This document shows positions 6,633-57,676 of a stretch of 64,000 nucleotides of DNA, one piece after another. Position 1 is the stretch's first letter; each line of letters starts with the position of its first letter. The DNA is taken from the NCBI GenBank assembly GCA_020629155.1, contig JAHDDW010000004.1, forward strand, positions 68,018-132,017, read 5' to 3'. This DNA is from Acidimicrobiales bacterium (lineage in GTDB: Bacteria; Actinomycetota; Acidimicrobiia; Acidimicrobiales; SZUA-35). The position numbers were made by a program, and so were the translations under genes. Below the pieces are notes generated by a model, which saw only the letters and a program-made list of their open reading frames with translations, did no database searches and was not told where the DNA came from.

Positions 6633-6685
6633 AGTAGTAACTTTAGTCTTCTAACAGCTAACATCACTACGCAGCTAAAATTCAC

Positions 6686-6807
6686 GCTATCTCTATTTTT
6701 GTTTCGTATCAAATCGTTTTACCAGAGAACCGCTAAAATCTGCGTGTAAACGCCCCGAGCAGAGCGGAAATACCGAGGGCATCTATACTAAATAGAGATG
6801 CCCTTTA
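6686..6807 (+). repeat. Family 1 dispersed palindromic repeat, copy A
   Basis: A reference copy of a repeat found at several places in the window. It has a T-rich left part (from GCTATCTCTATTTTT), a GC-rich core (ACGCCCCGAGCAGAGCGG) and a right-hand hairpin GGGCATCT (6777-6784) / AGATGCCC (6796-6803). It fills most of the hisN-hisC divergent region and ends about 10 bp before the hisC start, so the hairpin would lie in or beside the hisC leader. Confidence 0.8.
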
Positions 6808-9958: not shown

Positions 9959-10107
9959 CCTAGATAGTTGATATCAAGCCTGTTCAGGTGGTCATTCCCA
10001 CGAAAGTGGGAATCTCTGCTGAACAAGATTCCCGATTTCTCGGGGGAGACCATCCCGGAATCAAGAGAGAGCAAAAACGATAGCGTTACTTGCGTGCAAA
10101 ATACTTT
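9959..10107 (+). repeat. Family 2 palindromic repeat, copy 1
   Basis: A 149-bp element present again in inverted orientation at 14584-14732, about nine in ten bases the same by eye. It carries two hairpins, ATTCCCACGAAAGTGGGAAT (9993-10012) and CCCGATTTCTCGGG (10031-10044), joined by a conserved linker, then a conserved tail (AATCAAGAGAGAGCAAAAAC). The first hairpin belongs to the widespread bacterial GTCATTCCC-type repeats. Its right end touches family 1 copy B. Confidence 0.8.
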
Positions 10108-10229
10108 AAGGCATCTCTAAAAGTGTAGATGCCCCTCTGTATTTCCGCTGCGCTCGGCGCGTTTCACGCAGTCTTTTGGCGGTTTTTGATTAAAGTGGTT
10201 CAGCAAAAAAAGAATAAATAGAGATAGTC
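10108..10229 (-). repeat. Family 1 dispersed palindromic repeat, copy B
   Basis: An inverted copy of the element at 6686-6807. Read on the minus strand it matches the T-rich left part (CTATCTCTATTT), the ACCGCCAAAA segment, the CTGCGTG-AAACGC core and the closing GGCATCT / AGATGCC hairpin. It directly follows family 2 copy 1, so 9959-10229 is a compound of both families. The remaining 10230-10330 shows no gene. Confidence 0.8.
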
Positions 10230-10330
10230 TTTAGAATTCCACATACCTTTGCAATCAACCATCTAGCATCGTAGCTGAAGCTGCTATGGTGTCGCGCCGA
10301 TCTTCTTGCTGACTGGAAAAAGAGGATTGT

Positions 10331-14583: not shown

Positions 14584-14732
14584 AAATATTTTGCACGCAA
14601 GTAGCGCTATTGTTTTTGCTCTCTCTTGATTCCAGGGTGGTCATCCCCGAGAAATCGGGGATCTTGTCCAGCAAAGATTCCCACTTTCGTGGGAATGACG
14701 ACCTGAATAGGCTTGGAAACAACCATCTAGGT
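14584..14732 (-). repeat. Family 2 palindromic repeat, copy 2
   Basis: An inverted, near-identical partner of the element at 9959-10107, carrying both hairpins (14643-14662 and 14676-14695) and the conserved GTTTTTGCTCTCTCTTGATT tail. Its end lies inside the 3' end of the convergent transporter ATPase gene: the TAG stop (14727-14729) is within the repeat. The hairpins are placed to act as a 3' barrier for both flanking genes. Confidence 0.8.
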
Positions 14733-25591: not shown

Positions 25592-27796
25592 ATGACAGAA
25601 GAATCTAGAACAAATGGAGACTCCCTTGAGCGTAGGCCTAGTAATCGTTTTGCTGCTGAACAGCTTGACCAGAAAACTGCTAAAGGCTCCGTGGAGCAGC
25701 CCGAGCGAAGCGGGAATGCTGAGGGGATGTACGATAGTGCACATCCCCTTGAGTTAGAAGGATTCACCAACATAAAAAAGATAGCCCGTGGTGGATCATC
25801 TGTTGTGTACTCGGCATTTCAGGAAGATTTCGGGCGAGAAGTCGCTATTAAAGTTCTTAGCAACCCTGAAGATGAAGCCGAATGCGTTCGTTTCGAGCGT
25901 GAATGTCTTCTCATGGGGAAGCTTTCGCCCGTGTCTGGTGTTGCGGCTATTTATACTTCTGGAAAAACGTTGGAAGGCGCACCGTATCTAGTGCTGCCGT
26001 TTTATGCTCGTGGAACTCTTCAAGACAAAATAAATGCTGAAGGTGCGATTGCGTGGCGTGAGGCTATTCGTCTAATGCGCAGTGTCGCTAAAACCTTGGT
26101 TGCTGCACATAAGTTAGAGATCAACCATCGAGATATCAAGCCAGCAAATATTTTGTTAACCGACGAAGGGTCGACTGATCTTGTTGATTTTGGTGTGGCG
26201 TCTTCTGGCTATAACGGTCCTGAAACAACGGTTGCTGGTTCACCAGCGTTTGCTGCGCCCGAAATTTTGGCAGGTAAAGCAAATCCGTCAGGTGTGATGG
26301 TTGATATCTATGGAGTCGGCGCAACACTATGGGCTTTACTAGCTGGCAAGCCTCCATTTGTGACCTTCGATGATACGGCACAAACTGCTGCGTTCGTAGC
26401 AAAAACGCCTGTTGGTAACCTTCGTGATACTGTCCCAGACGAGGTTTGTTTGACGGTCGAAAAAGCGATGTCTAAACAGCCGCAAGATAGGTTTAACTCG
26501 GTCGCTGAATTGGTCGAAGTGTTCGACCTTTTGCTAGAGACAGAAGGTTCTCACGTAGGTTTCTCTGAAGATCCGGCTGCTACAGCTGCATTGCCGATCG
26601 TTGAAATTGGAGACAGCGACATTGGCGAGCTCAGCGAGTTAGAAGACGACCAGATAGACGAAGTGGCTTCAGTGCCTACTCATGAACCGCCTGGTATGGC
26701 TACGGCTATCTTTCCTGTAGTCCCAGAACAACAAGAGCAATCTGGTTTGTCAGTTTCTTCAATGCCTGATGGGCTAGAGCCAGATGTTGTCTATAGCGAT
26801 GAGATCGAGGAAAAGAAAAAGTTTCCTGTCCTTTTGACGCTTGTTATAACAGCGTTGCTTGTTATTGTCGGAGCTGCACTATTTCTCTTTGTTAAGGATC
26901 GAATAGAATCTGGCACAACGACAGTGGCTGACTATTCTGAAAGTAGCGAAGCAGAGGTAAAGACAAAGGCAGATGCTGCGCAGTGGCTATTTGAGGTAGA
27001 ACGAGCTCGCGAAGACGGCTCGAAAGAAGGCGATATTATCTCGCAGGAACCTGAAGCAGGCGCCGAGCTGGCTAAAGGGGGACTCTTAAAAATTGTTGTT
27101 TCTGAAGGTCAAGAACTGCGTGAGTTGCCTGAGAAGATTGCTGACCAAGATCCTGCTACTCTTTTTGAGGTTCTAGAAAAAAATGGTTTTGAGCGGGGCG
27201 AAATCATCAAACAAAATAGTACTGAAACTATTAAAGACGCAGTCATAGAGGCACAGGTCGAAGGTAAGGAAGCTGATGGTTCATATGAGACAGGTACAGT
27301 CGTTGATCTTGTTGTAAGTTCTGGTCCTGAGATGAAGACGATTCCATTGCTTACTTCTCCTGAAGAAGTGCAAACAGTGCTAGAGCAAGAGCTTGGCTTT
27401 ACAATTCGTCAAATTGATGGGTTTTCTGAAGATATCCCGCAGGGGCAAATTATCCGCACGGAACCAGCTGCAGGAGTTAAAGCAGAGGTTGGAAGTGAAG
27501 TTACAGTGGTTATCTCTACTGGGTCTGCTGAGCGTGATGTGCCAAGTGTTGACGGCATGGCTGTTGAACAAGCAACGAAGCTTCTAACCGACCAAGGTTT
27601 CGAAGTCGAAATAAAAAATGAGGCACCTAATAATTGCAGAATTCGAGTTAGGAATAGAAATGAATGCAGTTTGTATCAGGCTAATCTAGTGTGGAAGCAT
27701 TCTCCGAGCGGGAAACGAAAAGCTGGCGATAAGATCACGCTGTATTATCAAAACCCTGCAGGAGGGTTTTTTGAAGAAGGCGATGATGACGACTAG
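25592..27796 (+). CDS. PASTA-domain Ser/Thr protein kinase (PknB-like) with in-frame repeat insertion
   Basis: A 734-residue membrane kinase. The catalytic domain spans about residues 50-320: glycine loop RGGSSVVYSAF, VAIKVL with the ATP lysine, catalytic HRDIKPANILL near residue 178, VDFGVAS near residue 199, and SPAFAAPEIL. An acidic juxtamembrane region follows, then one membrane helix near residues 410-433 (FPVLLTLVITALLVIVGAAL), then about four extracellular PASTA repeats to the C-terminus. PASTA kinases sense muropeptides and control growth and division. Residues about 25-53 are encoded by a family 1 repeat. GGGAG precedes the ATG by about 9 bp. Confidence 0.92.
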   Translation: MTEESRTNGDSLERRPSNRFAAEQLDQKTAKGSVEQPERSGNAEGMYDSAHPLELEGFTNIKKIARGGSSVVYSAFQEDFGREVAIKVLSNPEDEAECVRFERECLLMGKLSPVSGVAAIYTSGKTLEGAPYLVLPFYARGTLQDKINAEGAIAWREAIRLMRSVAKTLVAAHKLEINHRDIKPANILLTDEGSTDLVDFGVASSGYNGPETTVAGSPAFAAPEILAGKANPSGVMVDIYGVGATLWALLAGKPPFVTFDDTAQTAAFVAKTPVGNLRDTVPDEVCLTVEKAMSKQPQDRFNSVAELVEVFDLLLETEGSHVGFSEDPAATAALPIVEIGDSDIGELSELEDDQIDEVASVPTHEPPGMATAIFPVVPEQQEQSGLSVSSMPDGLEPDVVYSDEIEEKKKFPVLLTLVITALLVIVGAALFLFVKDRIESGTTTVADYSESSEAEVKTKADAAQWLFEVERAREDGSKEGDIISQEPEAGAELAKGGLLKIVVSEGQELRELPEKIADQDPATLFEVLEKNGFERGEIIKQNSTETIKDAVIEAQVEGKEADGSYETGTVVDLVVSSGPEMKTIPLLTSPEEVQTVLEQELGFTIRQIDGFSEDIPQGQIIRTEPAAGVKAEVGSEVTVVISTGSAERDVPSVDGMAVEQATKLLTDQGFEVEIKNEAPNNCRIRVRNRNECSLYQANLVWKHSPSGKRKAGDKITLYYQNPAGGFFEEGDDDD
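25665..25750 (+). repeat. Family 1 palindromic repeat, copy C, inside the kinase gene
   Basis: Matches copy D (53566-53650) and the core of copy A. The shared blocks are CTGCTAAAGGCT, CCCGAGCGAAGCGGGA and the hairpin AGGGGATGT (25722-25730) / ACATCCCCT (25741-25749). It is read in frame as kinase residues of the type AKGSVEQPERSGNAEGMYD. Copy D would encode the closely similar AKGCVQRPERSGTSEGMY in the matching frame. Confidence 0.85.
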
Positions 27797-28287: not shown

Positions 28288-28310
28288 GAGAATGTTTGTT
28301 ATTGTACATG

Positions 28311-28402
28311 CCCTCAGTAGTGCAGCTGCGCTCAGTACGTTAACACGCAGCTTGGTGTTTACGTTATGTGGGGTTAGTGCTAAAACTCTAAGAGATACTT
28401 AG
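28311..28402 (-). repeat. Degraded family 1 repeat, copy E
   Basis: Read on the minus strand it matches copy A in the core (CTGCGTGTTAACG-, -GAGCGCAG-, CTGAGGGCATGTAC) but the right hairpin arm is lost. It occupies most of the ndk-RNase E/G gap (28288-28485), which holds no ORF. An imperfect inverted repeat (CGAATCCGG / CCCGATTCG, 28431-28455) follows. Confidence 0.55.
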
Positions 28403-49593: not shown

Positions 49594-49919
49594 AAGACGT
49601 GTATTCCCAAAAATATCTAGAATTTATAGTCGGCTTGCTTTGTTAGAAACTAAGAAGTCCGATGAGAATGTAAGAGGATGTCTTTTAATGCCCATCCCTT
49701 GCCGATTGAGTAGGAAGCGACACAACGACATGGTTAGAAGGTGGGTGGCAATTCATGCCGCAATGAAGGTAGTCTTGATGGAGGATGTTTTTTTATCTTA
49801 CATCTACTCGTTATTGCCGATGCGTTTGGTCAACTTTACGCAGGTCATAGCGTGTGTTTGTCCAAGCGATCAGTCTAGAAAAGCAATACAAAGGCGTGGC
49901 GTATATGAATGGAGCTGAA
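49594..49919. other. Divergent intergenic region between MoxR and HtrA genes
   Basis: A 326-bp gap. A plus-strand frame is open across it but begins inside the MoxR gene and has no start signal. GAGGATGTC and CATCCCTT near 49678-49704 recall the family 1 hairpin weakly. It must hold promoters for both directions; none is clear. Confidence 0.4.
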
Positions 49920-51408: not shown

Positions 51409-51480
51409 AGTGCATTTCTAAAAATTGTAGATCTCTGGTAAAGCGGTTCGATACAGAACTACTAAATAGAGCTAGCCTAG
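51409..51480 (-). repeat. Degraded family 1 repeat, copy F
   Basis: On the minus strand the left part (GCTAGCTCTATTTAG, TATCGAACCGCTTTACCAGAG) matches copy A, and it ends in ATCTACAATTTTTAGAAATGC, like the closing hairpin of copy B. The GC-rich core is deleted. It lies 5 bp after the HtrA gene stop. The rest of 51405-51570 holds no gene. Confidence 0.55.
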
Positions 51481-53565: not shown

Positions 53566-53650
53566 CCGCTGCTAAAGGCTGCGTACAACGCCCCGAGCGG
53601 AGCGGAACTAGTGAGGGGATGTATAGTGAAAAGACATCCCCTTTTTTAAG
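53566..53650 (+). repeat. Family 1 palindromic repeat, copy D, terminator-like
   Basis: Closely matches copy C across CTGCTAAAGGCT, CCCCGAGCGGAGCGGAA and the hairpin AGGGGATGT (53614-53622) / ACATCCCCT (53634-53642). The hairpin is followed by TTTTTT, so this copy has the form of an intrinsic terminator for the membrane protein gene ending at 53562. It also overlaps the stop of the convergent DUF2510 gene. Confidence 0.82.
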
Positions 53651-56234: not shown

Positions 56235-57542
56235 ATGCCCACGAAAACTGATGTTGCGCAAGAAAATAAAGTAGAGCAGCAAACATCATTGCGTTCGGTT
56301 TTAGGTGGCGGTTCAGCGTTGACGCTAGCGACGCTGCTTGCCAATGCAGGCAACTATGTGCTCAACTTGCTGCTGGGGCGGTGGTTGACACCAGCAGAGT
56401 TTGCTGATGCCAACTTGATGGTGACGCTGATGCTGCTTGTTACCGCCATCGCTGTCAGCCTACAGCTGCTAGGGGCACACTATGTTGGCGCTGCGGTGGC
56501 GAAAGATTCGTTTGAAGACAGCGATGCGATTATGTCCACCTTGGCTAGGTTCTCTTTATGGGCGGGTGTAGCTCTGGGTGCGTTGATTGCGCTGCCAGCT
56601 GTTGTCTGGAGCGATATTTTTAAGACAGAATCAGCGTGGCCTTTCGTGGTTCTTGGCGTCGGCATGCCGTTTTATTTAGTGCAATCTGTCGGCAGGGGAG
56701 TGTTGCTTGGTCACCTTATCTATAGGCCGCTAGCGTTAACGTTCATCGTCGAAATGGTTGCGCGTGTCGCCGCTGGTTTGCTGCTTGTGGCGTTAGGGTT
56801 TGGTGTCACAGGCGCAACCGTTGGTTTAACGCTTTCGTTTATTGCCACATGGGGTTCAACGCAAATTATTTTGAAGCGAGCAGGTCATCTTGTGAAGCGT
56901 AGGCTGTCGATGACCAAAGCGCAGCGCCAAGCGCTTTATAGCTATATCGGGCCGTTAGCGTTGCTACTTATCGGTCAGATCATTATTAACAATGGCGATG
57001 TTCTAATCGTTAAAGGTTCATTTGATGCAACTGACGCTGGCATTTACGCTGCGGTTGCGTTGATCGGCAGAGCAGTCTTTTTCTTATCTTGGTCGGTGGT
57101 TAACGCACTGTTTCCTGCGGTGACGCAACGTGAAGAAGGCGGTCACTCGTCGAAGCAATTGTTGCTTGGCGGCACTGGTGTTGTAGCGGTGATGTGTCTA
57201 GCAATGACAGCTGGAGCGTGGCTTCTTGGCGACTGGTTCTTCACTGGGTTTTTTGGTCCAGAGTTCGAAGGAACCTCATCGCTGCTTACCAAATATGCTT
57301 TGGCTACGTCGTTGTTTGCTGTAGCAAACGTGATCGTGACGTTGCAGCTTTCTTCAGGGCGGATCAAAGAAGTGGCCGTGCTTGTTGCTGGTGGCGTAGT
57401 GCAAACGCTGCTGCTTTTCATTATGAAAGACTCAGCCAACTCGGTTATCAACGCTCAGCTGATCGCTATGTTCTTGCTGCTGCTCGCAGTTGTCTACACG
57501 AGCCGGTCAACAATTGTCGGTTCTACGTCGCCTCAGCGGTAG
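56235..57542 (+). CDS. Oligosaccharide flippase (Wzx/MATE-like)
   Basis: A 435-residue protein with about 12-14 membrane helices, starting with GGGSALTLATLLANAGNYVLN near residue 24 and LGRWLTPAEFADANLMVTL, the usual opening of the polysaccharide-transporter family. It probably flips lipid-linked sugar units across the membrane. It lies 3 bp after the GT4 gene. Confidence 0.9.
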   Translation: MPTKTDVAQENKVEQQTSLRSVLGGGSALTLATLLANAGNYVLNLLLGRWLTPAEFADANLMVTLMLLVTAIAVSLQLLGAHYVGAAVAKDSFEDSDAIMSTLARFSLWAGVALGALIALPAVVWSDIFKTESAWPFVVLGVGMPFYLVQSVGRGVLLGHLIYRPLALTFIVEMVARVAAGLLLVALGFGVTGATVGLTLSFIATWGSTQIILKRAGHLVKRRLSMTKAQRQALYSYIGPLALLLIGQIIINNGDVLIVKGSFDATDAGIYAAVALIGRAVFFLSWSVVNALFPAVTQREEGGHSSKQLLLGGTGVVAVMCLAMTAGAWLLGDWFFTGFFGPEFEGTSSLLTKYALATSLFAVANVIVTLQLSSGRIKEVAVLVAGGVVQTLLLFIMKDSANSVINAQLIAMFLLLLAVVYTSRSTIVGSTSPQR

Positions 57543-57603: not shown

Positions 57604-57676
57604 GAAATTATTTCTAAATTTGCCCCCATTTTCAGAAATTATTTCTAAATTTGCCCCCATTTTCAGAAATTATACT
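57604..57676 (+). repeat. 31-bp tandem iterons upstream of the second DUF4143 ATPase
   Basis: Two complete and one partial copy of a 31-bp unit start at 57604, 57635 and 57666. Each full unit carries the palindrome GAAAT-T-ATTTC. The third unit changes to GAAATTATACTC and so creates a TATACT -10 box at 57671-57676. The array ends 15 bp before the ATPase start. Confidence 0.8.

What the first reader, a model, noticed from the sequence alone, without database searches (positions are those of the whole stretch)
6686..6807. Family 1: a palindromic repeat family scattered over the window
The same architecture (T-rich left part, CCCCGAGCGGAGCGG-type core, right hairpin with arms GGGCATCT or AGGGGATGT) occurs at 6686-6807, 10108-10229 (inverted), 25665-25750 and 53566-53650, with degraded copies at 28311-28402 and 51409-51480. 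Two subtypes are visible: A/B (GGGCATCT arm, longer left part) and C/D (AGGGGATGT arm). There is no ORF, so movement would depend on an enzyme elsewhere.
Basis: seen in the sequence. Interest (0 to 1): 0.65.

Follow-up and report, generated by a model that had tools for sequence, protein, structure and literature searches.

The report
Structured mobile palindromic repeat family
This bacterium carries about a hundred scattered copies of a 121-letter DNA element that looks like a small parasite moved by a borrowed enzyme, one of which has added 41 amino acids to an intact-looking kinase gene; no relative of the element was found in the other genomes searched.

Summary
All six places are copies of one family; a covariance model finds a seventh in the window (49781-49901) and 145 matches at E<=1 in the 3.17-Mb genome. 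The unit is about 121 bp with inverted-repeat ends (left GGCTATCTCTATTTATT, right GGGCATCTCTANTTATT read inward); its right end is itself a hairpin. Complete copies are flanked by a 4-bp direct repeat, consensus TTWA (22 of 47 match at 3 or more of 4 bases, 13.4 expected, 0 of 2000 permutations). Inside lies a branched fold kept through compensating changes (118 copies, 86% of pairs formed against 36-49% in slid controls). Copies are mostly intergenic; one sits in frame, with a perfect TTGA duplication (123 nt, 41 codons), in a PASTA kinase whose syntenic relative lacks it. No match in 60 relatives. It behaves like a MITE (non-autonomous transposable element). It is not a REP: no GTAG/CGTC tag, wrong size, no Y1 transposase. 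The enzyme that moved it was not found. New are the family itself and its covarying internal fold.

The parts
6685..6803 (+). Copy A, full length (119 nt)
   Evidence: R1 136 bits, E 7.2e-30; flanks TTCA / TTTA
6730..6767 (+). Core of copy A: closing stem P1 (model 48-52/81-85), hairpin P2 (60-63/68-71), short pair P3 (72-73/79-80)
   Evidence: pair counts on 118 genome copies
6777..6803 (+). Right-end hairpin P4 of copy A; its 3' arm is the right terminal inverted repeat
   Evidence: 8 of 8 pairs of helix 5 show changes on both sides, 92.2% of cells paired
10109..10229 (-). Copy B, full length (121 nt)
   Evidence: R1 105.6 bits, E 9.6e-23
10105..10108 (.). Target-site duplication TTTA of copy B, low side
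   Evidence: sequence; identical 4-mer at 10230-10233
10230..10233 (.). Target-site duplication TTTA of copy B, high side
   Evidence: sequence
25630..25748 (+). Copy C (119 nt), in frame inside the PASTA kinase gene
   Evidence: R1 88.5 bits, E 9.4e-19; ORF 25592-27796 open through it
25626..25629 (.). Target-site duplication TTGA of copy C, left
   Evidence: sequence; 123 nt between the two TTGA copies
25749..25752 (.). Target-site duplication TTGA of copy C, right
   Evidence: sequence
25592..27796 (+). PASTA-domain Ser/Thr kinase gene that carries copy C (about 41 extra residues before the kinase domain)
   Evidence: Pfam Pkinase and PASTA; relatives lack the stretch
53569..53641 (+). Copy D, right part only (model 48-121)
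   Evidence: R1 61.9 bits, E 1.7e-12
28288..28400 (-). Degraded copy
   Evidence: R1 44.9 bits, E 1.5e-8; R2 54 bits
49781..49901 (-).
   Evidence: R1 44.3 bits, E 2.1e-8; R2 55.3 bits
51421..51477 (-). Internally deleted copy (left half and remains of the right end)
   Evidence: R1 35.5 bits, E 2.5e-6

Best explanation
A MITE-like, non-autonomous transposable element of about 121 bp, seen only in this genome among those searched. Shown: many copies, inverted-repeat ends, a 4-bp TTWA target duplication, and a conserved branched fold in one fixed orientation. Inferred: a DDE-type transposase encoded elsewhere, now lost, missing from the assembly or simply not recognised, bound the ends and inserted the element at AT-rich 4-bp sites with staggered cuts; the folded core plus right-end hairpin helped the element (as single-stranded DNA during transposition or replication, or as RNA) to be used or tolerated. 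Most copies survive between genes. Because element plus duplication of copy C is 123 nt with an open frame, it could also be tolerated in a coding sequence.
For: 145 matches in the own genome; 69 core sites against 3 in the reversed control. Ends: left and right inverted repeats in the consensus; 75.7% of cells pair end to end in the 30-copy set. Target duplication: of 47 complete copies 22 match at 3 or more of 4 flanking bases (13.4 expected, 0 of 2000 permutations) and 8 are identical (3.0 expected, 14 of 2000); same signal in 27 of the first 28 copies aligned (67 of 108 positions, 52.6 expected, 1 of 2000). Empty-site comparison at protein level: the kinase in G001 (same genus, also next to folC, folC 50% identical) and in G007 lacks the stretch. 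Fold: 86.2% of cells paired, covariation 0.245 against 0.133 shuffled (0 of 500) and 0.040-0.057 slid. Position: 116 of 145 intergenic and 18 at gene edges by a codon-usage heuristic. No orientation bias (35 sense, 45 antisense, p 0.31), as for a random inserter.
Against: No transposase partner found: PF01797 0, PF13546 0, PF01609 one IS1182-type gene whose inverted repeats differ from the element's ends; only three transposase families were searched. End-to-end pairing in 118 copies is hardly above shuffles (66.0 against 64.4%, 7 of 500), so the ends do not visibly co-evolve as a pair. No two of the 47 complete copies exceed 92.6% identity, so no recent jump is seen, and no strain pair was available to show movement. 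Most flanks no longer match exactly. A transposase that reads only ends would not explain covariation in the core.
Confidence: 0.72

Rival explanations
1. A family of structured RNA or mRNA-control elements kept by selection at each place (3'-end stabilisers, attenuators, processing sites); dispersal is ancient and the fold is what is selected.
For: Compensating changes in P2, P3 and P4; on a tree of 90 of 145 copies at least 23 changes of pair type at 72-80 and 19 at 98-118 (tree poorly supported).
Against: No orientation preference to flanking genes (35 sense against 45 antisense; 27 divergent, 19 convergent). No Rfam family reaches its cut-off in the window apart from two tRNAs, and none near it in 7 loci. 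Folding energy only moderately below shuffles (median z -1.53, 17 of 47 below -2) and no better than the opposite strand (-1.8, 19 of 47). Not found in relatives.
Confidence: 0.12
2. A single-strand (HUH/Y1, REP- or IS200/IS605-like) passenger: hairpins are recognised by a Y1 transposase.
For: Subterminal right-end hairpin with alternative complementary arms, as in REP subfamilies (PMC3733652 passages); fixed orientation; covarying hairpins.
Against: No PF01797 match in the own genome; target-site duplications; terminal inverted repeats; no GTAG/CGTC tag.
Confidence: 0.1
3. RNA-mediated (retroposon-like) spread of a folded transcript, with 5'-truncated copies.
For: Right end kept more often than left: the best alignment reaches model 115 or beyond in 107 of 145 and starts at 0-9 in 78 of 145; a second group of starts at 50-59 (20 of 145).
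Against: The better-informed right hairpin biases local alignments, and the fuller model extends several 'short' copies leftwards. Complete copies have terminal inverted repeats and a 4-bp duplication. No reverse transcriptase was looked for.
Confidence: 0.04

Closest known systems
Bacterial MITEs in general (review PMC10969869: passages and section 2.1 read)
   Same: Under 500 bp, inverted-repeat ends, short target duplication, AT-rich intergenic sites, stem-loops, no transposase gene
   Different: No parent IS identified; the core has a covarying branched fold; the right inverted repeat is also one arm of a terminal hairpin
ERIC (127 bp), Correia/NEMIS (about 107/155 bp), RUP (107 bp) (PMC2229807, section 5 part 1 read)
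   Same: Size, copy number, scattered mainly between genes, imperfect palindromes; ERIC and Correia also fuse in frame with genes
   Different: Different sequence and target: RUP is reported at TA sites (ERIC at TA is recalled); here TTWA, 4 bp. Those fold mainly end to end; here hairpins are internal and at one end
Rickettsia palindromic elements (PMC2229807 section 5 part 1; PMC10969869 passages)
   Same: In-frame insertion into a conserved protein gene with an open frame
   Different: Here 1 clear case among 145, not a general habit; other sequence and host
Caulobacter CIR elements (PMC2229807 section 5 part 1)
   Same: Hairpin arms joined by a linker, conserved fold
   Different: The GANTC motif was not tested here; CIR has not been found inside genes and its mobility is unclear
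REP / GTAG- and CGTC-tagged repeats (PMC3733652 abstract and passages)
   Same: Hairpin arms vary by complementary changes; many copies; some tandem units
   Different: 121 bp, inverted-repeat ends, target duplication, no tag, no Y1 transposase found

Membership tests
MITE | Short (<500 bp), no transposase gene | tested here: met
   Model of 121 positions; 109-135 nt in 47 complete copies
MITE | Terminal inverted repeats | tested here: met
   Consensus ends; end-to-end pairing 75.7% of cells in 30 copies, 66.0% in 118
MITE | Target-site duplication of fixed length | tested here: met
   4 bp TTWA, 22 of 47 match at 3 or more of 4, 0 of 2000 permutations
MITE | Intergenic, AT-rich insertion sites, many copies | tested here: met
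   116 intergenic and 18 edge of 145; TTAA/TTTA flanks commonest
MITE | Autonomous IS with the same ends (usual, not required) | tested here: inconclusive
   3 transposase families in a 59-contig draft and 23 stretches around end-like sites, no IS seen
REP (GTAG/CGTC) with RAYT | 20-40 bp stem-loop with terminal GTAG or CGTC | tested here: not met
   121-bp unit; the consensus bears no such tag beside the hairpin
REP (GTAG/CGTC) with RAYT | REP-associated Y1 transposase | tested here: not met
   PF01797 0 of 1 own genome, rings in 5 of 14 controls
Rickettsia palindromic elements | Frequent in-frame insertion into protein genes | tested here: not met
   One clear case; 11 of 145 overlap an ORF by more than half, several at ORF starts or uncertain
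Known RNA family (Rfam 15) | Match above gathering score | tested here: not met
   Only two tRNAs in the window; no match near its cut-off in 7 loci

The most novel reading that the evidence does not exclude
The element is a transposon passenger whose folded form, not only its ends, is required for mobility: a branched single-stranded core (P1-P3) plus a right-end hairpin built from the terminal repeat itself, read by an enzyme that nevertheless duplicates a 4-bp TTWA target. That would join the hairpin recognition of HUH elements to the target duplication of DDE elements.
Probability: 0.15. Interest if true: 0.7.

Novelty: new member of a known kind. Interest (0 to 1): 0.42.

Why it matters
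It is a large repeat family in an apparently actinobacterial lineage, absent from every other genome searched, with a target duplication, an in-frame gene insertion and a covarying fold that are all testable. About a hundred diverged copies give a natural mutational scan of what the element had to keep while it spread, which can tell end recognition from fold recognition. It also warns annotators that residues of about 13 to 53 of this kinase are transposon-derived.

Tried and rejected
REP with Y1 transposase: rejected (size, no tag, target duplication). Partner IS: PF01609 gave one gene, an IS1182-family transposase whose flanking inverted repeats do not resemble the element's ends; PF13546 gave none. 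A pattern scan for ends GGNNATCTCTANTTATT (up to 3 mismatches) gave 425 sites against 227 in the reversed control, list truncated; 23 stretches around unattached end-like sites were read for a second end and 10 ORFs (from four of those stretches and from L177) scanned with Pfam: ABC transporter, RNA ligase, amidase, isochorismatase and so on, no transposase. These stretches showed a few more degraded copies and no IS. A stem CTGCG/CGNAG in the core was tested, is no better than shuffled and was dropped. A pseudoknot-like pair 57-65 was seen and not pursued: it may only mark subfamilies. Viral contigs: 0 exact core matches; plasmids: none for copy A; phage records were not searched. Papers: seven searches listed no paper that describes this element; only listings were seen for most, passages or sections of PMC2229807, PMC10969869 and PMC3733652 were read. 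Most subscription papers are not in the library.

Caution on the fold: P1 and P4 came from RNAalifold on 30 copies, P2 and P3 from a mutual-information scan over all 145 copies; the counting uses largely the same copies (118 matches, 117 distinct, from 100 of the sources held), so it is description with controls, not independent confirmation. P1 has only one compensating cell and P3 has two pairs. The single pair of helix 6 is only 34% formed. The tree for counting events is almost unsupported.

Full report
WHAT WAS CHECKED. The core pattern CCCGAGCGNAGCGG with up to one mismatch has 69 sites, 3 in the reversed control. BLAST with a consensus of the repeat gives 40 matches, most of them nearly full length. 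A covariance model R1 from 30 copies gives 145 matches at E<=1; 150 of 1040 first-look candidates were scored; 114 of the 145 have at least 40 bits and 34 at least 100.

ANATOMY. In the orientation of the core the unit reads: left end GGCTATCTCTATTTATT, T-rich left part, AACCGCTAAAA, core CTGCGTGnnAACGCcCCGAGCGgAGCGG, AAATACCGA, right hairpin GGGCATCTAYAATNANTAGAGATGCCC. The left end and the right arm are inverted repeats, so the right arm can pair either with the left end of the element or with the inner arm of its own hairpin. Flanks of 47 complete copies agree over 4 bases more often than permuted flanks: 109 of 188 positions against 89 expected (z about 3.7); 22 of 47 match at 3 or 4 bases against 13.4 (0 of 2000 permutations); 8 of 47 are identical against 3.0 (14 of 2000). 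TTAA and TTTA are the commonest. Three bases with an offset of one score a little higher (z 4.2) because they overlap the same signal. Window copies B (TTTA/TTTA) and C (TTGA/TTGA) have perfect duplications; copy A has TTCA/TTTA.

THE FOLD. RNAalifold on 30 copies proposes the stem CCGCT/AGCGG and the right hairpin. A mutual-information scan over 145 copies puts pairs 72-80 (C-G 67, G-C 34, U-A 12 of 131), 98-118, 101-115 and 60-71 near the top, together with links that do not pair and mark subfamilies. Counted on 118 model-aligned copies, the structure P0 to P4 forms 86.2% of cells (shuffled 77.4, slid 35.6-48.9), has 172 cells changed on both sides (shuffled 62.7, slid 27-38) and covariation 0.245 (shuffled 0.133, slid 0.040-0.057), 0 of 500 shuffles as high. 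The number of pairs with a change on both sides (15) is not above shuffles (14.0, 208 of 500). P4 carries most of it (8 of 8 pairs), then P2 (3 of 4) and P3 (1 of 2, 37 cells); P1 varies mostly on one side or not at all. End-to-end pairing in the same set is 66.0% (shuffled 64.4, 7 of 500), so the ends are inverted repeats but show little co-variation beyond the subtype with GGGTATGTCT...AGACATTCCC. Folding energies are only moderately low on either strand. On a tree of 90 of 145 copies, built without the tested columns, pair type changes at least 23 times at 72-80, 19 at 98-118, 12 at 60-71 and 8 at 101-115, but the tree has almost no supported branches. That the fold was kept while the family diversified is inferred; why is open.

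WHERE COPIES LIE. With genes called by a simple codon-usage rule, 116 of 145 matches are intergenic, 18 overlap a gene edge and 11 overlap an ORF by more than half. Several of the 11 are at doubtful ORF starts. The clear case is window copy C: the kinase ORF 25592-27796 (Pkinase, PASTA) is open through it, element plus duplication is 123 nt, and it adds about 41 residues ahead of the kinase domain. G001, same genus, has a PASTA-type kinase next to a folC that is 50% identical to the window's folC, and G007 has the best homologue; both begin directly at the domain. A second copy, of the right part, reads through a long ORF at C58:53937-54001, but there the ORF may join two genes, so it is uncertain. 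Orientation to neighbours is unbiased (35 sense, 45 antisense, p 0.31). Some right halves stand in tandem (C28:44833-45028, C5:350900-351136, C37:79777-79884).

AGE AND SPREAD. The 47 complete copies have a nearest-neighbour identity of 0.85 at the median and 0.926 at most, so no fresh burst is visible, although identical new copies can be lost in draft assemblies (general knowledge). R1 finds nothing in 60 relatives (2 of the same genus, 34 more of the family, 24 of the order). R2 finds nothing in 36 family members at E<=0.1. The core pattern with up to 3 mismatches is in G000 only: 1 of 397 genomes drawn from the order and 1 of 396 from the phylum (overlapping sets); 0 exact matches in viral contigs, none for copy A in plasmids.

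MECHANISM. The anatomy is that of a MITE: inverted ends, 4-bp duplication, no gene, AT-rich intergenic sites. A DDE transposase acting in trans is the simplest agent (inferred). IS families with 4-bp targets such as IS5 and IS701 come to mind from recall, but PF01609 finds only an IS1182-type gene with other ends and PF13546 finds nothing. PF01797 (Y1) finds nothing. The search for a parent IS through its ends found none. This is not proof of absence: three families, a draft genome, and a family that may have outlived its enzyme.

COMPARISON. PMC10969869 (section 2.1 read) describes MITEs as typically under 500 bp with 4-30 bp inverted repeats and direct repeats that fade with age, which fits. 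ERIC, Correia, RUP, RPE and CIR are described in PMC2229807 (section 5, part 1 read). RPE and the ERIC/Correia fusions are the precedent for copy C; CIR, with two arms and a linker, is the nearest precedent for internal hairpins. GTAG/CGTC REPs (PMC3733652, abstract and passages) show that alternative complementary stems within a mobile repeat family are known, so compensating change alone is not new. New here are the family, its target, its restriction to one genome among those searched, and a fold more elaborate than end-to-end pairing.

VERDICT. A real, large, lineage-restricted mobile repeat family of MITE type; REP membership fails. Ordinary in kind, unusual in the strength of its internal fold.

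Noticed in passing
window 9995-10014 (+) and 14676-14695 (-): A second palindromic repeat, TTCCCACGAAAGTGGGAATC, twice and identical (0 expected by shuffles); the first lies in a longer GTCATTCCC...GGGGGAGACCATCCCGG hairpin region.
   Followed up: no
window 57604-57665: Perfect tandem duplication of a 31-nt unit GAAATTATTTCTAAATTTGCCCCCATTTTCA just after ORF 56235-57542.
   Followed up: no
G000:C28:44833-45028 (L161), C5:350900-351136 (L010), C37:79777-79884 (L177): Tandem arrays of the right part of the element with a unit of about 65-70 bp, as if the core plus hairpin could multiply on its own.
   Followed up: partly
L022 around 1501 (G000:C56:43702-43763): A copy with a perfect core whose right hairpin is a quite different long palindrome (AAGATGTAAAGAAGATCTCTAGAGATCCTCTTTACATCTT).
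   Followed up: no
L121 (G000:C55), 748-2202: IS1182-family transposase gene with inverted repeats 697-727 / 2350-2380, the only PF01609 match in the genome.
   Followed up: yes
G000:C5:159308-159406 (+) and 159380-159501 (-), and C58:80421-80540 / 80531-80647: Overlapping copies, one inverted over another and one in tandem, which suggest nested insertions or template switching.
   Followed up: no
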